A stretch of 64,000 nt of DNA from a virus. The notes under the pieces are model-generated. The model was not told where the DNA came from. It did not search any database and saw only the letters and a list, made by a program, of their open reading frames with translations. The first letter of the stretch is position 1, and each line of letters starts with the position of its first letter. Position numbers and translations under genes: made by a program. Where the stretch lies: positions 36,611-100,610 of IMG/VR virus record IMGVR_UViG_3300032893_000015; one strand, written 5' to 3'. This document shows positions 36,494 to 64,000 of this stretch, piece by piece.

Positions 36494-37609
36494 TCAGCTC
36501 AGCGTAACGTGCGCCAGGTCCGTGCGTATCGTCTGCCCTGCCTCCGGCACGACGTCGGTGATGGGACTGACGATACTCGCTTGGCTCTGCACGAGCCCAT
36601 CGGCGACGAACCGCCTGAGCACCGAGTACAAGTCCGCCAGGTACAACGTTCCGCTGACGGGTAGGCTGTTGACGAACTCCACAATCGCCGCCTGCACCGC
36701 CGCTGACATCGTCACGGTGTCCACGCCCGTCTGCCACGCCAACGCGAGCTGAATGCTCTGGATGAAAGGGATGCTCGTGTTGACGATGACACCGATCCCC
36801 GCCGCCCTGTAGTCGAGCAGGGCCACGGCCACCGCCTGCGCCATGGGCACGCTGGCCACTCCGCTCGAGTCCGCGATGTACAGCTGCACGAGCCGTGCGG
36901 GTTGTGCGGTGTTGGTGATGACCTCTTGGGCCAGCGCACTGACGACTCCCGGCACGGTCAGGGCGCCGAACTCGATGGCCGCGAGCACTCCCCTTCGCGC
37001 CGTGAGCCAAAAGTTGCGCAAGCGGTTCTTGAACGTGTCCAGGTCCTCCCGATCCTCGCCTCCGGCCGACGTCGCGTCGTTGTTCACCTGAATGCTCGGG
37101 TCGAACAGGGCGGCTGGGTTGGCGAAGCGCCGTATCTGATTCGCCCCTACTTGTGACGCTTTCCCTGCCTCTGCCGCGCGCGCGTTCACAATGACCTTGT
37201 CCAGCGTCGTCGCTCCGAACGTCGCGGGCTGCGTGGTGAGAAACTGCGTTCCCCCGAGCGCCGTCATCAGCGTATTGGCTGGGATGTTCCCTCCTCCGGC
37301 TGCAAAGCTCGCCCTGTAAAAGCGCACTTGCGTGGTCGCGGGCGAAGCTCCCTTGCGGGTCGTTTGGTACCGGTCCCACGCATACCGGTCCAGGTCGTCG
37401 TCGTCGGTAATCGAGTCGAGCAGCAGCCGGCTGACGGCGAAGCCCAGTTGCTTGGTGACGGCATCCGCGAGCACACTCGCCGTCCCCACGAACAGGTTCG
37501 CATCGCTCCCCTGCACGTCGACCATTCCCGGGTCGATCTTCTGCGCTCTGCTGAGCACATACTGTCTGCCCAGCTGGTAGTAGTCGAGCCTCGTCGGTAG
37601 GTCGGCCAT
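36494..37609 (-). CDS. Baseplate J-like wedge protein
   Basis: 371 aa. DREDLDTFKNRLRNFWLTAR followed by RGVLAAIEFGAL and PGV is the hallmark segment of the Baseplate_J family (Mu gp47, P2 gpJ, T4 gp6 core). The C-terminal repeat-like beta-alpha units (AVAVALLDYRAAGIGV) also fit. Forms the baseplate ring that triggers sheath contraction. Lies next to the gp25-like gene, as usual. Confidence 0.85.
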   Translation of the reverse strand: MADLPTRLDYYQLGRQYVLSRAQKIDPGMVDVQGSDANLFVGTASVLADAVTKQLGFAVSRLLLDSITDDDDLDRYAWDRYQTTRKGASPATTQVRFYRASFAAGGGNIPANTLMTALGGTQFLTTQPATFGATTLDKVIVNARAAEAGKASQVGANQIRRFANPAALFDPSIQVNNDATSAGGEDREDLDTFKNRLRNFWLTARRGVLAAIEFGALTVPGVVSALAQEVITNTAQPARLVQLYIADSSGVASVPMAQAVAVALLDYRAAGIGVIVNTSIPFIQSIQLALAWQTGVDTVTMSAAVQAAIVEFVNSLPVSGTLYLADLYSVLRRFVADGLVQSQASIVSPITDVVPEAGQTIRTDLAHVTLS

Positions 37610-47377: not shown

Positions 47378-49990
47378 CTACGCCGCCTGCGGCAGCGACT
47401 CTTGCACGGTCACCTGGTCGCCGATGGTGGTCTCCAGCACGATCGAATCCATGCTCGGCAACGTCTGCACGCGCAGGATGACTCGGTTGATGCCCTGCTG
47501 CAGCGTTCTGGTGGTGTTGCCCTTCTTGGCGTCGAGGGTGAACCCACCGATACGCTGGAATGATGGGTTGTTCGCGCTGAGCAACCCCTCCATGAAGGCC
47601 TTGATCTCCTGGGCGAAGGCGTTGCGTCGGTTCACCGTCATCAGCCGCTTGGAGTACGCCTTCCCTCGCTGCGCAATGCTGTCCTGTATGTAGTCGGCCA
47701 TTCTCCTGCGCGCGATGCGCACCAGGCTCGGGTTGACGTTCGGGTCCACCGCCGTGACGCCCGACTGGAAGCTCGCGTTGCCATCATCGATGCGCAGAGC
47801 TGCGATACCGCTGGCCTTGAACAGCTGGTAATCGGCCATCTGGAAGCCCTGCACGTTGGCGCCCTTCTCGATGCCGTTGACGATGCTCGCGAACGACGTC
47901 TCCTGGCCCGGGTTCTCCTCGGGTGGCAGCTGGCTCATGATGCTGGCCATTAGCGAGTCCGACCCGACGTCGATGTTCCCGTCCACGGTGAACGCCGTGT
48001 ACCCGGTGTTGGGCGGGTTGCCCGCCAGTCCCAGGCGCGCAATGAGCGGCACGTAAACGTTCGTGCCGATGTAGCAGTAGACGACGCGCTGATCCCTGTA
48101 CGCACCCACTCCCGGATCGGCCACCGGCGAGGTAGCGGTGTACTTGTCCGTGTTGAGCGGCGGCCTGACGCACGCCATCCTCCCGAAGCACCCGCTGGCG
48201 CTGGCGGTGAGGGCATTGGTACGCAGTCCTCTGCGCACGGTGTTGCTCTGTCGTGCCGACAGTACGATGTTCACCTGCTTGGCCACGGTGTTGATGTCCA
48301 TGCTCGGTTGTCCGAGCGCCGTGACGTACGCCGCATCGATAGCCGACTCGCTAAGGGCCGCGCTGATGGGCTGCAGGTTCTGCACGGAGAAGCTTCCGAT
48401 GTCCGGGGCGTTGGTGATCTGGGTGACGGCTCCCGCTGTTGCCGCCCCGACGCTCCCGTCGTCCAGCGCCGGGCGCACTGGCACGGTAAAGGGCCCTGCG
48501 TTGGGCACGGCAACTCCTCCGCTGCCCGACGTCTTCCCTCCGATGAGCACCCCCACGGTGGTGAAGTTCACGTCCTGCGCCGTGACGTACACGGGCCCTG
48601 CGCTCCCCGGCACCTGCACGATGGTCCCCGCCGCCAGGACGCCCAAGGGAAAGGGCGCCCCCACGGTCGTCCCCAGCACGAGCCCGAGCTTGGTGAGCAC
48701 CGCTTGCGCGCTCACTGCGACAACACGCACTTGCGCCGCCGTCGTCCCGGTGAGGGCGCTCGTCAGGTAAAGGTTCGCCGCTCCGTCTGCGAAGGCCACC
48801 GCCGGCTGTCCCGCGGCGGTGAACGCGTTGTTGATGGCCGTCACGACCAGGGCCACCGTCGTCTCGGTCCCTGCGAACGTCACGGTCACGTTCGGCTGCG
48901 CATCGATGCCGAGGGTGATGGTGCTTGCTGCCGTGGGCGGTAGGGTCACCGCCGTCCCCACGACGATGGCCTGTCCCTGCTGGGTGTTGATGGTCCCGGC
49001 GGTGAGCCCGAATGCGGTCGCTGTCGTTCCGCTCCCGACCAGGATGTACGGTGCGGTCGTTGGCGACGTATTGCTGATGCGCAGGCGGCTCGAGCTGTCG
49101 AACTCCACGCGTGTGTTGGCGATGGCCGTTTGAATGACAGCTGTCACTTCGCTCTGGCTGACGCTCGCAATGTTCGCGACGTTCCCCGTACCCAGGGTCG
49201 TCCCCGCCGTGAGTCCGAGTGCCGTCCCGACGCCTCCGCTCGAGAACGACACAACGCGCACCTGCGCCTGATTCCCGCGCTGCAGCCCGGTGAGCGAGAA
49301 CTGCCCGGAGCTCGTCGCCGCGAGGGTAAAGCCCGCCGTCGCATTGATACGCGCGATGACTCCCGCCTGGCTACCGTCGCCGGTGAGGAACGTGACGGTA
49401 AAGTTCGGCCTTCCGTCCACCCCGAGCACCACCTGGTCTCCGGGGTTCACGGCGTAGGTCGCCCCCGACGAGGTAACGCTCGCCGCCGTCGCGTTGAAGG
49501 TCGCGTTGGTGGGGCCAGCCCCTATGTCCAACTGCACGACTTGTCCCGGCTGCAGCGAGAACTGCAACCCGGGTAGCCCGGTGACGTACGGCAGTTTGGT
49601 GAACTGCACGTTGCCGACGCTCGTGTTCACGCGGCAGATGATGAGCCGCGCGTATTGCTTGCCCTGCAACTGGACGAAGCCGTTCCCGTTCCAGTACTCC
49701 ACGGCTCCCGCCCCATCCGCCTTCCGCGCAATGGCGCAGGGGTTCTGCGCTTGCACGCCAAAGTACGTGTACCCGAGCGTGCCGAAGTTGTTCGTGAGGT
49801 CGTCGGCGCTGCTGACCTCGAGCGGGAAGTTGTAAGGGCCGTTCTCGAACTCTCCGACCATCATCACCGTCCCGGTCCCGATGCCCTTCAGGGCACTCGG
49901 CGGCTCCAGGTCCAGGATGTTGACGGACTCGATGTTGAGGAGGACGTCATTACCAGGGTCAAACGTAAATCGCCTTACGAATGAGGACAA
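47378..49990 (-). CDS. Contractile tail sheath protein, with inserted repeat domains
   Basis: 870 aa. The C-terminal third has sheath signatures (FKASGIAALRIDDGNASFQS, RRRMADYIQDSI, VQTLPSMDSIVLETTIGDQV). TTG 49990 follows AAGGAGAGGTATGTAA. Residues about 150-460 hold tandem beta-domain repeats (LGVDGRPNFTVTF and LGIDAQPNVTVTF, each ending in LGL..GTT), making it much longer than typical sheaths. The insertions probably decorate the tail surface. Confidence 0.85.
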   Translation of the reverse strand: MSSFVRRFTFDPGNDVLLNIESVNILDLEPPSALKGIGTGTVMMVGEFENGPYNFPLEVSSADDLTNNFGTLGYTYFGVQAQNPCAIARKADGAGAVEYWNGNGFVQLQGKQYARLIICRVNTSVGNVQFTKLPYVTGLPGLQFSLQPGQVVQLDIGAGPTNATFNATAASVTSSGATYAVNPGDQVVLGVDGRPNFTVTFLTGDGSQAGVIARINATAGFTLAATSSGQFSLTGLQRGNQAQVRVVSFSSGGVGTALGLTAGTTLGTGNVANIASVSQSEVTAVIQTAIANTRVEFDSSSRLRISNTSPTTAPYILVGSGTTATAFGLTAGTINTQQGQAIVVGTAVTLPPTAASTITLGIDAQPNVTVTFAGTETTVALVVTAINNAFTAAGQPAVAFADGAANLYLTSALTGTTAAQVRVVAVSAQAVLTKLGLVLGTTVGAPFPLGVLAAGTIVQVPGSAGPVYVTAQDVNFTTVGVLIGGKTSGSGGVAVPNAGPFTVPVRPALDDGSVGAATAGAVTQITNAPDIGSFSVQNLQPISAALSESAIDAAYVTALGQPSMDINTVAKQVNIVLSARQSNTVRRGLRTNALTASASGCFGRMACVRPPLNTDKYTATSPVADPGVGAYRDQRVVYCYIGTNVYVPLIARLGLAGNPPNTGYTAFTVDGNIDVGSDSLMASIMSQLPPEENPGQETSFASIVNGIEKGANVQGFQMADYQLFKASGIAALRIDDGNASFQSGVTAVDPNVNPSLVRIARRRMADYIQDSIAQRGKAYSKRLMTVNRRNAFAQEIKAFMEGLLSANNPSFQRIGGFTLDAKKGNTTRTLQQGINRVILRVQTLPSMDSIVLETTIGDQVTVQESLPQAA

Positions 49991-59471: not shown

Positions 59472-59669
59472 TCAGAAGCCGTCGTCCCCGTCGAACAGCG
59501 GCAACTCCTTCCACGGTCGGATCTTCCCCGAGTCCGGCAGGTCCACGGTGATGCGCGTCACCTCCAACCGGGACAGCTTCGGCACCACCTCGCGCAGGTT
59601 GATGATCTTGCCATCGAGCTCCCCCGTCTCGGGATAGTCATCCGGCACCGTCACTGGCTTCAGACTCAT
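59472..59669 (-). CDS. Small hypothetical protein, 65 aa
   Basis: ATG 59669 in an ATGA overlap with the MuF gene stop. Compact sequence (DGKIINLREVVPKLSRLEVT, ending PLFDGDDGF). Translational coupling makes an immunity or accessory role for the effector protein upstream conceivable, but nothing in the sequence shows it. Confidence 0.55.
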   Translation of the reverse strand: MSLKPVTVPDDYPETGELDGKIINLREVVPKLSRLEVTRITVDLPDSGKIRPWKELPLFDGDDGF

Positions 59670-62317
59670 CTCTTGATCTCCTCGCATTCGACAATCAGAC
59701 ACTTCGGGTCTTCCTCGGCCTTATGCCTGGCCAACACTCTGAAGCTCGCCTTGCTACTGAGGATGATCTCTTTCTCGTGCTCGTGTTGTGAGTGCGTCTC
59801 CACGCCAATACCCGAGTGCTGGTGGATGACGAAGAACACCTTGTTGTCGTCCTTGTTGTACCGGCTGACTCCTCCCATGAAGTCCATGGCTACGCCCGCC
59901 TTACGGCTGGTACTCGTGAGGGCTTCTGCGTGGACGACGTCCTCGTCCATGAACTTCTTCATCGTCTCGTCCTTCAGCCCCCGGATCCCCCGGAACACTT
60001 GCCCCGGCTGCGCCGGCACCTTCCCGAACACCCGTTCGAGCGCCTCCCCCTGTCGCACCGCTGCTTCATAACCCATCTTCCCGATCTCTTTTTCGTACTC
60101 GTCCCGGGTCATCCTTTGGGCTGCCCGAATCACTTTGTACGAACCTCCCGTGAAATTGCTCACCGCAAGTCTCTCCTCCCCGACCACTCCCCCCATCGCC
60201 CTACGCACTTTATTCAGGTACTCAGCCACCTGTTCTCCCCCCGGGGGCACTTCCAAGTCCTTCTTGGGCAACTTGCGGGTTGGTAGCTTTTCGAACTCCC
60301 GTATCGCCAAGTTCTTTGTGTCCGGCTTCGGTGGCACAACTCGCTTGCCGTACTCCGCCGTGATGGGCGCTCCCGGCTTCGGCTTGGGTGCTTTCAGCTC
60401 CTGCAGCTTGCCCTTGAGGAAGTCCGCCCTGGCGTCGAGCATCTTGACGATCTTCGCCTTGTCGTCGGGCACCATCCCCGGTGCCACCTTCTCGACGTAC
60501 TTGCCCCAGCCCCCGCTCTTCTTCTGCAGCTTCAGGATGGCTTCGATCTGTTTTTTGACGCCCTTGGGTCCCGCCGCGAAATCCTCCGCTTTGGCGATGC
60601 CCGCCTTCTGCGCCACCCGCGCATAGCTGCTGTTGATGTTCGGCTTGAAGAAGTTCTCCCAGTCCGCCTTTGCGTCCGTCTGCGCCGCCTCTGTCTTGCG
60701 CCCCTTGTTCGCGCGAAACAGGAGCGACCCTCCGTTGTCGATGCGGGCCACTCCCCCTTGCGCCGTCTTGACGGCGTTGTCCATCGCGAGCCCAACGGCA
60801 TCCCAGTTCCCGAGCAAGACGTCCGCCGCGAACCCCCCGAGCACCTCCTTGGCCAGCTCCTCGGTGAGGTTGCCGCTCAGCGTCTCTGCCTCGAGCATCG
60901 TGCTGGCGAACGCCACCTTTCCGTCGTGTTCGAACGCCTCCGACTCGGGTGCCCCCAGCCCCAGGTCCCGGTAGATGTTGTTCGCGATAACCTCGCACTG
61001 CGCTTGCGTCGGGTCCTTGTAGAACTTCACGTACCGTTCGACGTCGTCCGTCCCGCGGTAAACGCCCCCTTCGTTGCTCCCGGTTGCGTCCTGCAGTTTC
61101 GTCCCGAGGATGACGTCTTCCCGGTCCTCCGGCTCTTCCTCCTCTGGGGGTAGTTGGTCGAGCGGTAGCGGCTCCTCCGCTACCCCTTGATCGGCCGGCA
61201 CCACCGGCACGACGTCCCCTTCCTCCGCCGCCCCTTCGTCTACGGGCACGTTCGGCTTGTCGAGCTCCTCGGGCACTTGCTCTTGCGCCTTGGTGCCCTC
61301 TTCGGGTTCCTTACCGAAGTCCTCGCGCGCGATGGTCGTGCGCTCGGGAATGGGCGGCATCGCCTCCTTGTGCCCTTCCGCCGTCCACGCCGCGAGCACC
61401 TTCCCGTCGTCCACCCACTCGAGGTACGGCGGAATGACCCAGCTCACCCGGTGCGCCACGACGATCTCGCGATCGTTGGGGCGGTTGGGCGGATGCATGT
61501 ACAGCCCGTACCAGCTCTCGAACGGCTCTTCGGGTCGGCGTATCTGCCCGTGTACGGCGTAGCTGTCGGCTCCCGTACGGTCGTCGAACACCGCCGACAG
61601 GATCTTGCACATGTCCCCGAGCTGCTCGTCCGCGTTCTTGATGGCTTCCCAGTTACCGCGATTGCAGGCGTTGGCACACTCGGTACGAACAATTCTGGCT
61701 GCCCAGTAGGCCGGCGCTGCCTGCAGGAACGGACTTCGTGCGGTGATGTCCGCGCGCATCTCGGCCCAGCTCTTCTTGGCGACGAAGCCCTTCTGCAGCT
61801 CCCGTTCGAAGTGCCCAATGGTCTCCAGGCCGTACCGCTCCAGGATGCCCTTCTGCGCGCCCGCTTCGGGGTCCCCTCCCAACCTCCTGAGGATGCTCCC
61901 CCGGGCCCCGTCCTGGGCCGCCTGCAGCATCAGCGCCTCATTCAGGGCTAGGGGCTGCATCCCCACCCCCCGGAAGCTCTTGTCGGCTTGTACGAGGTAG
62001 TTCGCCGTCCCCGTCGCGGCGCCTTCGGCCGCCTGCAGGCCGTGCTCCAAGATCGCATCCTTCAGGCCGCCCTTGAGACCCCTCAACACCTGCTGCACTT
62101 GCGCGAGAGCCGCTCTGCGCTGCACCGCCGTGAACGAATCGGGTCCCGGGCCCTTGAGGCCTTCCGCCTGTTGCAGGCGCTTGGCGAGGTCCTTGGCTGC
62201 GTCGTTCAACAGCTCGCGCAAGCGCTCCTGCCCGGCCGCTTGGGAAAAGCCCATCGCGTGTCGGCGGTTGCGCTCGAGCACGTCCTTCGCCGCTTGTACT
62301 GCTTTGCTGGTCGCCAA
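59666..62317 (-). CDS. MuF head protein fused to kinase-like and ADP-ribosyltransferase domains
   Basis: 883 aa, TTG 62317 after GGGGAGGCTTCTTTT. Residues about 155-305 match the SPP1 gp7/MuF minor head domain (AARIVRTECANACNRGNWEA, ending near HRVSWVIPPYLEW). After an acidic linker, 400-630 resemble a HipA/PI-kinase-like fold (VERYVKFYK, FAADVLLGNWDAVGLAMDN, ARIDNGGSLLFRA). Residues 690-880 carry the R-S-E triad of ADP-ribosyltransferases: VFRGIRG (R776), LTSTSR (802-804) and EKEIIL (E848, E850). MuF proteins enter the head, so the two enzymatic domains may be injected effectors. Confidence 0.8.
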   Translation of the reverse strand: MATSKAVQAAKDVLERNRRHAMGFSQAAGQERLRELLNDAAKDLAKRLQQAEGLKGPGPDSFTAVQRRAALAQVQQVLRGLKGGLKDAILEHGLQAAEGAATGTANYLVQADKSFRGVGMQPLALNEALMLQAAQDGARGSILRRLGGDPEAGAQKGILERYGLETIGHFERELQKGFVAKKSWAEMRADITARSPFLQAAPAYWAARIVRTECANACNRGNWEAIKNADEQLGDMCKILSAVFDDRTGADSYAVHGQIRRPEEPFESWYGLYMHPPNRPNDREIVVAHRVSWVIPPYLEWVDDGKVLAAWTAEGHKEAMPPIPERTTIAREDFGKEPEEGTKAQEQVPEELDKPNVPVDEGAAEEGDVVPVVPADQGVAEEPLPLDQLPPEEEEPEDREDVILGTKLQDATGSNEGGVYRGTDDVERYVKFYKDPTQAQCEVIANNIYRDLGLGAPESEAFEHDGKVAFASTMLEAETLSGNLTEELAKEVLGGFAADVLLGNWDAVGLAMDNAVKTAQGGVARIDNGGSLLFRANKGRKTEAAQTDAKADWENFFKPNINSSYARVAQKAGIAKAEDFAAGPKGVKKQIEAILKLQKKSGGWGKYVEKVAPGMVPDDKAKIVKMLDARADFLKGKLQELKAPKPKPGAPITAEYGKRVVPPKPDTKNLAIREFEKLPTRKLPKKDLEVPPGGEQVAEYLNKVRRAMGGVVGEERLAVSNFTGGSYKVIRAAQRMTRDEYEKEIGKMGYEAAVRQGEALERVFGKVPAQPGQVFRGIRGLKDETMKKFMDEDVVHAEALTSTSRKAGVAMDFMGGVSRYNKDDNKVFFVIHQHSGIGVETHSQHEHEKEIILSSKASFRVLARHKAEEDPKCLIVECEEIKR

Positions 62318-62323
62318 AAAGAA

Positions 62324-62355
62324 GCCTCCCCGACCACTCTACCGGCCGGGGAGGC
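62324..62355 (-). terminator. Terminator-like hairpin that also holds the MuF ribosome binding site
   Basis: Minus-strand GCCTCCCCG, 14-nt loop, CGGGGAGGC, then TTCTTTTT. This is a good intrinsic terminator for RNA coming from the repeat array. The 3' arm is also the GGGGAGG binding site of the MuF gene, so folding would hide it. Confidence 0.6.
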
Positions 62356-62399
62356 ATTCTCGCACTCGCGCTTATTCGTTACCGACTCGTTGTTCTTCG

Positions 62400-63234
62400 C
62401 CTACTCGCTCTTGATCTCTTCGTTCTCACCGGTTCGTTCACTCAACCGGTTCGCCTTCGTTCTACGGCCTCCGTCCACTCCGCATCCATCATTTCGTTCG
62501 GTGATCTCCGTCCACTCTTCGGCGTTTTCTTCGTTCCGATGGCCTCGTCCACTCGCCCTGACATCTCTTCGTTCCGGTGGATCCGTCCACTCTTCGGCGT
62601 TTTCTTCGTTCGCCTCATCTCGTCCACTCATGGGCCATCACTTCATTCGTGAAGATTCGTCCACTCTCCTTGGGCTTCTTCGTTCAGCTACATCCGTCCA
62701 CTCGCACACCATCTCTTCGTTCCGATGGATCTGTCCACTCGCGCTGTTTCACTTCGTTCTGGGGTCTGCGTCCCACTCTTCAGACTTATCTTCGTTCGGC
62801 TGCATCCGTCCGCTCTTGCTCCATCTCTTCGATTCGTCGGTATCGCCCACTCTTCTTCGTTCTCTTTCGTTCGACGCTGTTCGTTCACTCCCAAGCTATC
62901 TCTTTCGTACCGGGCTGTTCGTCCACTCGAGCAGGCTCACTTCGTTCAACGCCTTTCGTCCACTCCCGCTTGTTCACTTCGTTCGGTGCGATTCGTCCAC
63001 TCCTCGCTGTTCTCTTCGTTCGAGCCCTGTCGTCTTACTCTTGTTCGATCTTTTCGTTCGTTCGCCGACGTCCACTCGGCTTCATCTTCTTCGTTCGCCT
63101 CTCATCGTCCACTCCGGCTCCTACTCTTCGTTCTTTCATTCTCGTGGGCCAGTCCACTCCGATACGTTCACTTCGTTCGCCGCTACTCGTCCACTCGACG
63201 CGCTTCGCTTCGTTCGGCAGCTCCCGTTCACTCC
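62400..63234 (-). repeat. Non-coding array of 23 units with 37-bp period
   Basis: Plus-strand block A (GTCCACTC and close variants, given here by the first base of TCCACTC) starts at 62400, 62437, 62475, 62512, 62549, 62586, 62623, 62660, 62697, 62734, 62771, 62809, 62846, 62884, 62922, 62959, 62996, 63033, 63071, 63108, 63153, 63190 and 63227. Steps are 37 or 38 bp, once 45. Between them, 18-19 bp in, is block B (CTTCGTTC). The 10-11 bp between blocks vary. 37 is not a multiple of three and no long frame survives, so it is not protein-coding. The last unit overlaps the stop codon of the IS110-like gene. This fills the 872-bp gap. Confidence 0.9.
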
Positions 63235-64000
63235 GCCGCTACTTCGTCTCCGTCCTCGTCTCCGTCTTCCTCTTCGATGGCTGGCGCCAGCGGCATCGCC
63301 GTGTTGTCTCGCCACCCGACATCCCCGACCATCTCGATGGCTTCCTCGAGCGTCATGATGCGGGGCTCGCGTACGGCGATCTTCCCCCCGTGCATGTACC
63401 CGAGCTTCGCCGCGTACCAGTCCGGCCACACGGGCAACCCCTCCATCGCCCGCCACACCATGTACAAGTCCTCGACGAAGATATCGATCGACTTCCACAT
63501 GCCCCTCTTGTCGATGAAGCCCAGAGCCCCCTTGTGCACTTCCTTGGTGCCGTCTGGCTTGAGCCGCGTCCAGGTATTGTCCTTGGGGTTGTAGCGGGGA
63601 TCGTTGATCGCTCCCGCGCGCGACTGCTGCCAGATATCGAAGTACTTCGAGGTCCTGCCGAACGGCGGGTGCTTGTTGGGATGGGCATTCTTCCGGATGC
63701 TCGTCCACGCGCTGTAGATGACCGTGCGTAACCGTGCGTTGTACCTGTTGACGTGCCCCTTCTCCCTCCGTACGAGCCTTCCTGTCCTTTCGTCCGGACA
63801 AACGCCGAGAAACATCTTCAGGTTGCTCGCCTTCACTGCTCGGTTGATGTCGATCTCGGCAACGAGCTGCGCCGCGGTGACTTCCCCGATCCCCGCCACC
63901 CCCTTCAGCCACTCCTTCCAGATGCGGGTCTTCTTCAGGGCCCGCTCCATCTCCCACTTCAACCCTTCGTCCGCCGCCCTGAGCCTTTCCTCTGCTAGGG
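63228..64000 (-). CDS. IS110-family-type transposase, C-terminal part (cut by window edge)
   Basis: The frame is open through the right edge. Visible: a helix-hairpin-helix Transposase_20 domain (GVAGIGEVTAAQLVAEIDI, NLKMFLGVCPDERTGR, GHVNRYNARLRTVIYSAW). About 110 further residues follow, including KSIDIFVEDLYMVWRAMEG, then an acidic tail (EEEDGDEDGDE). The N-terminal RuvC-like DEDD domain, if present, is outside. In this family a conserved Ser-Gly usually follows the Pro of GxxP; here it is Thr-Gly, so catalysis may be lost. No insertion-sequence ends are seen. Possibly a domesticated phage recombinase. Confidence 0.7.
   Translation of the reverse strand, partial: LAEERLRAADEGLKWEMERALKKTRIWKEWLKGVAGIGEVTAAQLVAEIDINRAVKASNLKMFLGVCPDERTGRLVRREKGHVNRYNARLRTVIYSAWTSIRKNAHPNKHPPFGRTSKYFDIWQQSRAGAINDPRYNPKDNTWTRLKPDGTKEVHKGALGFIDKRGMWKSIDIFVEDLYMVWRAMEGLPVWPDWYAAKLGYMHGGKIAVREPRIMTLEEAIEMVGDVGWRDNTAMPLAPAIEEEDGDEDGDEVAAE

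What the first reader, a model, noticed from the sequence alone, without database searches (positions are those of the whole stretch)
62400..63234. Array of 23 units with strict 37-bp period, alternating two 8-bp blocks every 18-19 bp
Seen directly: GTCCACTC and CTTCGTTC alternate every 18-19 bp over about 830 bp, with variable 10-11 bp between. Both fit one looser pattern, TYCRYTC, so the true repeat may be half the unit. The period (about 3.5 helical turns) is kept although the in-between sequence drifts, so spacing is under selection. On the minus strand the RNA would be purine-rich, with 23 GAGUGGAC and 23 GAACGAAG motifs. It is not CRISPR (blocks too short) and not protein-coding (37 is not divisible by 3). 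Inference: an RNA sponge for an RNA-binding protein (CsrB-like sponges have about 20 GGA motifs at similar spacing), or a long DNA-binding platform for partition, packaging or origin function.
Basis: partly seen in the sequence, partly recalled or inferred. Interest (0 to 1): 0.92.

Follow-up and report, generated by a model that had tools for sequence, protein, structure and literature searches.

The report
Phage TIGR guide-RNA array with TasA
The periodic array is a cassette of 23 short two-part guide RNAs next to the gene for the protein that should carry them: a TIGR-Tas system (an RNA-guided DNA-binding system described in 2025) on a phage genome, with unusual repeat sequences and unknown targets.

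Summary
The array is real: 23 units plus a truncated last repeat, minus strand, window 63233-62363, ending in a strong terminator (62355-62324). It is neither a sponge nor a decaying repeat but the guide array of a TIGR-Tas system. Two conserved repeats (edge GAGUGGACGR, loop GAACGAAGWGA) alternate with two 8-nt spacers that differ between units.

The 'IS110-like' gene just upstream is tasA. It runs off the window and continues at the other end of the 100.6-kb record, whose ends overlap by 155 bp. A second array of 7 units precedes it. The predicted fold of its window part matches only TasH and TasR in the PDB at E<=1e-3 (11 of 11). No nuclease domain was detected.

Twelve distinct phage Tas relatives carry 35-36-bp dual-repeat arrays; three more distant ones do not. 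The edge stem shows a compensatory C-G to U-A change.

Differences from the comparators: GA-type boxes instead of UG/CCA, a 37-nt unit, and an array starting inside the tas stop codon.

I propose that a nuclease-less TasA dimer uses the tigRNAs to bind and block double-stranded DNA. Targets are unknown; the phage's own genome shows none that convince. New member of a known kind.

The parts
62363..63233 (-). Downstream TIGR array: 23 units of edge repeat (GAGTGGACGR) + spacer A (8 nt) + loop repeat (GAACGAAGWGA) + spacer B (8 nt), ending in a 3'-truncated edge repeat GAGTG
   Evidence: exact parse; chance control
63224..63233 (-). First edge repeat GAGTGAACGG; its GAGTGA is the last sense codon (GAG) and the stop codon (TGA) of tasA
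   Evidence: read directly
62363..62406 (-). Last, 39-nt unit with a 13-nt loop (GAGTCGGTAACGA), followed by the truncated edge repeat GAGTG; the upstream array ends the same way (13-nt loop GAATGAAAAACGA)
62324..62355 (-). Rho-independent terminator (13-bp stem, 10 GC pairs, then TTCTTTTT) shortly after the truncated edge repeat
   Evidence: fold -34.4 kcal/mol, z = -4.2
63228..64000 (-). 3' part of tasA (about 257 of 348 codons, plus stop): Nop/IS110-RNA-binding-like domain; the 5' part and a second, 7-unit array lie at the other contig end (L004 = record start, tasA start near 429, array 442-696), where the contig ends overlap by 155 bp
   Evidence: Pfam PF02371 E 5e-10; fold match to TasH/TasR

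Best explanation
This is a dual-repeat TIGR-TasA locus on a contractile-tailed phage genome. Shown from sequence: on the minus strand, array 1 (7 units) - tasA - array 2 (23 units) - terminator, all co-oriented. Inferred by homology to Faure et al. 2025: the transcript is cut in the middle of each edge repeat (GAGUG|GACGA) into about 37-nt tigRNAs (5 + 8 spacer A + 11 loop + 8 spacer B + 5). A TasA dimer binds one tigRNA through the box D/box C-like ends of the two repeats. Spacer A then pairs with one DNA strand and spacer B with the other at an adjacent site (one target strand reads A, 0-2 nt, reverse complement of B; this is my derivation from the paper's cut geometry). No nuclease domain was detected, so binding should unwind and bend the target and block transcription or replication rather than cut it. 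The most likely targets of about 30 such guides are competing mobile elements or host genes; that last step is a guess (I would give it about even odds). The confidence below is for the identity as a TIGR-TasA locus.
For: The array matches the structural rules in the TIGR paper: two alternating repeats, constant short spacers, an edge repeat truncated at the 5' start of array 1 (GAACGG) and at the 3' end of both arrays (GAGTG), a terminator after array 2. The neighbour is a Nop-type protein: PDB sequence hits to TasR 9mty (1e-5) and TasH 21kl (9e-4). The AlphaFold model of the window part hits only TasH/TasR structures at E<=1e-3 (11 of 11). Twelve distinct phage relatives have 35-36-bp dual-repeat arrays next to tas, including Salicola phage CGphi29, the published TasH system. 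In the edge repeat, pair 3-8 is G-C in 26 of 27 units and pair 4-7 is U-A in 24 of 27; against C-G at 4-7 in most comparators this is a compensatory change, also seen in L011. Spacers are at near-random identity between units while repeats are conserved.
Against: TasA is only about 25-30% identical to any relative found and sits on a long branch. The repeats are GA...GA rather than the UG...CCA reported for TasR, and the unit is 37 rather than 36 nt. The structure model covers only the window part of the protein, with moderate confidence (pLDDT 73, pTM 0.66). There are no expression data. No target is identified, so 'blocks competing DNA' is not evidenced. The 8-nt spacer length partly follows from my assigning length variation to the repeats. 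Three more distant Tas relatives (L022, L023, L025) have no 36-bp array.
Confidence: 0.94

Rival explanations
1. TIGR-TasA used on the phage's own genome: the tigRNAs direct TasA to phage promoters or origins to time gene expression or replication.
For: Best hits for the predicted geometry (A + revcomp B) are marginally better than for permuted spacer pairs (mean 2.59 vs 2.77 mismatches, p = 0.05), and not for the reverse orientation.
Against: No exact 8+8 site and only one site with a single mismatch in 100.6 kb. The p-value is weak among many tests, and no signal appears with 9-nt spacers. The same test is negative in two other TIGR phages, Mvi-JY20 and CGphi29 (the automatic CGphi29 parse was imperfect).
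Confidence: 0.15
2. An IS110-family transposon with its bridge RNA; the array is the transposon end or decayed copies.
For: Pfam calls the gene Transposase_20 (IS110 family), and IS110 shares the Nop-like RNA-binding domain.
Against: No IS110 DEDD catalytic domain was found in the whole joined reading frame. A bridge RNA is a single unit, not a 23-unit array. The structure search matches Tas, not IS110.
Confidence: 0.02
3. One reading: a CsrB-like RNA sponge for a GGA-binding regulator.
For: The edge repeats carry GGA about once per 37 nt; the transcript is purine-rich and ends in a terminator.
Against: GGA lies in only one of the two repeats. A sponge does not predict two repeats with constant-length variable spacers, truncated end repeats or a linked Nop-protein gene. 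No Rfam match at E<=1.
Confidence: 0.02
4. A DNA platform (partition, packaging or origin) or a decaying simple repeat.
For: Regular period; tandem organisation.
Against: Asymmetric alternation, truncated ends, terminator, same direction as tas, compensatory change in the edge stem across loci, and the same architecture beside 12 diverged tas genes.
Confidence: 0.01

Closest known systems
Dual-repeat TIGR-Tas systems (Faure et al. 2025, Science, PMC12045711), in particular TasA systems
   Same: Nop-domain protein without a detected nuclease; two alternating 8-12-nt repeats with short constant spacers; arrays up- and downstream of tas; truncated edge repeats at array ends; terminator; phage-borne
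   Different: Repeats start and end with GA (GAGUGGACGR / GAACGAAGWGA) instead of the UG/CCA described for TasR; 37-nt unit; 8-nt spacers (9 in the published TasA example FpTIGR); 23 + 7 units (paper: most often 5-15); array begins inside the tas stop codon; 13-nt loop in the last unit of each array
Salicola phage CGphi29 TIGR-TasH (SpTIGR; TasH structures in the PDB such as 9w04, 21kl)
   Same: 8-nt spacers; 10-nt edge repeat that lines up with ours (AAGCGAGCCA / GAGTGGACGA), pairs at the same positions 3-8 and 4-7; our protein groups weakly with TasH (support 73/59)
   Different: TasH has an N-terminal HNH nuclease; ours has a proline-rich N-terminus with no detectable nuclease; box C is CCA there, CGA here
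IS110 transposases and their bridge RNAs
   Same: Shared Nop-like RNA-binding domain (Pfam Transposase_20)
   Different: No DEDD catalytic domain, no single bridge RNA, no element ends found
Box C/D snoRNPs
   Same: Per the TIGR paper, Nop-domain protein and guides flanked by D and C boxes; here the boxes contain GA as C/D boxes do (a lead from memory, not a test)
   Different: Array of 37-nt units; no kink-turn protein or fibrillarin partner identified

Membership tests
Dual-repeat TIGR-Tas | Nop-domain (Tas) protein encoded next to the array | tested here: met
   PDB sequence hits TasR/TasH; fold search: 11 of 11 significant hits are TasH/TasR
Dual-repeat TIGR-Tas | Two distinct alternating 8-12-nt repeats separated by short spacers of fixed length | tested here: met
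   edge 10-11 nt, loop 11-13 nt (one 19), spacers 8 nt in all but one unit, assigned by hand
[quoted passage not shown]
   GAACGG starts array 1, GAGTG ends both arrays; terminator after array 2. Array 2 starts with a complete edge repeat that overlaps the stop codon
Dual-repeat TIGR-Tas | Box motifs similar in edge and loop repeats; extra edge pair supported by covariation | tested here: met
   both repeats start GA and mostly end GA or GG; edge pair 4-7 C-G to U-A across loci, from locus consensus sequences
Dual-repeat TIGR-Tas | UG...CCA box sequences as in TasR arrays (not strictly defining: the paper says the motifs diverge between loci) | tested here: not met
   GA...GA here
Dual-repeat TIGR-Tas | Processing to about 36-nt tigRNAs bound by Tas | not testable with these tools
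   needs RNA sequencing; predicted size here 37 nt
Dual-repeat TIGR-Tas | tigRNA-guided binding of both DNA strands | not testable with these tools
   needs a biochemical assay
TasA subtype | No nuclease domain fused to the Nop domain | tested here: met
   Pfam scan of the full joined 360-aa reading frame finds only Transposase_20; N-terminus not modelled in 3D
IS110 transposase | N-terminal DEDD catalytic domain | tested here: not met
   no PF01548 match
CRISPR array | Repeats of about 25-36 nt with spacers of similar size | tested here: not met
   10/11-nt repeats, 8-nt spacers

The most novel reading that the evidence does not exclude
This locus represents a separate TasA lineage, perhaps derived from TasH by loss of the nuclease (weak grouping, shared 8-nt spacers and GAG-type edge repeat as in L010). 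It would use a different box code, GA facing GA as in kink-turn C/D boxes rather than UG/CCA, to load 8+8-nt guides as a pure DNA-binding silencer with about 30 guides.
Probability: 0.3. Interest if true: 0.62.

Novelty: new member of a known kind. Interest (0 to 1): 0.55.

Why it matters
TIGR systems were described only in 2025, and what TasA does and targets is openly unknown. This locus gives a large, complete phage example: 30 guide units, both arrays, terminator and tas. Its repeats are far from the published UG/CCA type, which widens the range of tigRNA box sequences a Nop protein may accept. It also shows that a TIGR array can be recognised from raw sequence by its 36-37-bp dual-repeat pattern. 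The self-target test argues mildly against regulation of the phage's own genome and leaves foreign or host DNA as the likelier target.

Tried and rejected
Self-targets: spacer pairs in up to four geometries, gaps of 0-2, three spacer lengths and both choices of edge repeat, against permuted pairs; nothing convincing; likewise in Mvi-JY20 and CGphi29. Array growth by duplication: only one identical spacer (B of units 17 and 19), no clear overall excess. A recurring genomic neighbourhood: packaging genes in some phages but clamp loader, primosome or polymerase genes in others, so no pattern. Close relatives: no contig with the same repeat sequences in viral contigs or genome contigs, and none encoding the neighbouring head protein in viral contigs. 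TasParB partner: the gene upstream of array 1 has no ParB match in Pfam. Rfam: none. A database-wide target search was not done, because 16-nt targets give many chance hits in collections of this size.

Full report
Observation. The region 62400-63234 holds a genuine periodic array. Autocorrelation peaks at 37, TRF finds 37- and 74-bp periods, and a chain of 45 alternating motifs scores 118 against at most 6.1 in shuffles. Read on the minus strand and parsed by hand so that every base is used, it is 23 units from 63233 to 62363: edge repeat GAGTGGACGR (10 nt), spacer A (8 nt), loop repeat GAACGAAGWGA (11 nt), spacer B (8 nt). Where units deviate (38, 39 or 45 nt) the extra bases can be placed in the repeats and the spacers kept at 8 nt; this is partly a choice of parsing.

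Surroundings. The window ends inside the next gene. The window is bases 36611-100610 of a 100,610-base virus record. The record's ends overlap by 155 bp with one mismatch, so it is circular or terminally redundant, and the gene continues at the record start. Joined across that overlap it is open for 360 codons. The likelier start is the ATG 12 bases after the upstream array, preceded by AAGGA, giving 348 aa. Upstream of it lies a second array on the same strand (record 696-442): 7 units, the first with a truncated edge repeat GAACGG, one lacking spacer A. Both arrays end in a 39-nt unit with a 13-nt loop and a truncated edge repeat GAGTG. The downstream array is followed by a strong terminator; the upstream one leads into the ribosome-binding site of the gene. 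The first edge repeat of the downstream array contains the gene's stop codon.

The protein. Pfam gives Transposase_20 (E 5e-10) and no DEDD or nuclease domain. PDB sequence search gives TasR 9mty and TasH 21kl. An AlphaFold model of the window part (mean pLDDT 73) matches only TasH and TasR structures at E<=1e-3, 11 of 11.

Relatives. Searches with protein alignments found 12 viral contigs encoding Tas relatives, 10 of them distinct (L011/L012 and L013/L014 are near-identical pairs; L017 repeats L008). The phage collection added Microcystis phage Mvi-JY20 and, through L010, Salicola phage CGphi29. All 12 distinct loci have a 35-36-bp dual-repeat array beside tas; L008 has only a few units upstream, read directly. 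CGphi29 is the published TasH system. Three more distant relatives, found through L009 in actinobacterial phages, have no 36-bp period; hairpin-rich stretches upstream of two of them resemble the stem-loop arrays of the TIGR paper. So the link of this protein family with such arrays was recovered independently here.

What it is. The features match the dual-repeat TIGR arrays of Faure et al. 2025: two alternating 8-12-nt repeats, short constant spacers, truncated edge repeats at the ends, terminator, Nop protein. Our edge repeat lines up with that of TasH arrays over 10 nt. The paper's extra pair in the edge repeat is present: 3-8 is G-C in 26 of 27 and 4-7 is U-A in 24 of 27 units. Most other loci have C-G at 4-7, so this is a two-sided change, seen also in L011. 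The comparison uses consensus sequences read by eye, and relatedness of the sequences was not controlled for.

How it works (inferred). By analogy with the published systems the transcript is cut inside edge repeats into about 37-nt tigRNAs, bound by a TasA dimer, which opens DNA at sites where spacer A pairs with one strand and spacer B with the other. Without a nuclease, TasA would occupy and bend the target. The paper itself leaves the function of TasA and the targets of TIGR arrays open. I tested the phage's own genome: the predicted geometry gives slightly better best hits than permuted pairs (p = 0.05) but no exact site, and the effect disappears with 9-nt spacers. Two other TIGR phages give no signal. 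I therefore favour foreign or host DNA as the target, without direct evidence.

What is different. Boxes are GA...GA rather than UG...CCA; spacers are 8 nt although TasA has no nuclease; the unit is 37 nt; 30 units lie in two arrays. The protein groups weakly with TasH (73/59), which would fit a TasH-derived TasA, but its branch is long and this is not established. The paper's supplementary alignments could not be consulted, so similar repeats may already be listed there.

Verdict. A real and well-supported TIGR-TasA locus: new member of a known, very recent kind, with divergent repeats.

Noticed in passing
L022 2989-3696 (Mycobacterium phage BPBiebs31 gp74) and L022 2650-2960: About 75 Mycobacterium phage records, mostly on M. 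smegmatis mc2 155 (gene often named 'transposase' or 'DNA binding'), encode Tas/Nop relatives. The one examined has no 36-bp array; a hairpin-rich intergenic stretch just upstream resembles a TIGR stem-loop array. Well-studied laboratory hosts could make TasA function testable.
   Followed up: partly
L023 2420-2960 (Arthrobacter phage Talia1610, upstream of gp255); L025 (prophiFSAT01-1 gp27): Same pattern: Tas relative, no 36-bp period; in Talia1610 several long hairpins enclosing TACCC-like motifs lie upstream.
   Followed up: partly
L021 4460-4810 (Microcystis phage Mvi-JY20, PP438412 near 22.1 kb): Unannotated dual-repeat TIGR array with terminator downstream of a TasA listed as hypothetical protein.
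   Followed up: yes
L004 2343-5351, minus strand: Portal-like protein of this phage interrupted by an intein with a LAGLIDADG endonuclease domain.
   Followed up: no
L004 598-626, minus strand (upstream array, unit 3): A 29-nt unit in which spacer A is missing exactly (GAGTGGACGC directly followed by GAATGAAGTGA).
   Followed up: no
window 62518-62629, minus strand (units 17 and 19): The same spacer B (ACGCCGAA) occurs in two units with different spacers A, a possible trace of recombination between units.
   Followed up: partly
window 36494-37609, 47378-49990, 59666-62317, minus strand: Baseplate wedge, tail sheath and head maturation protease matches: the genome that carries the array is a contractile-tailed phage.
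   Followed up: no
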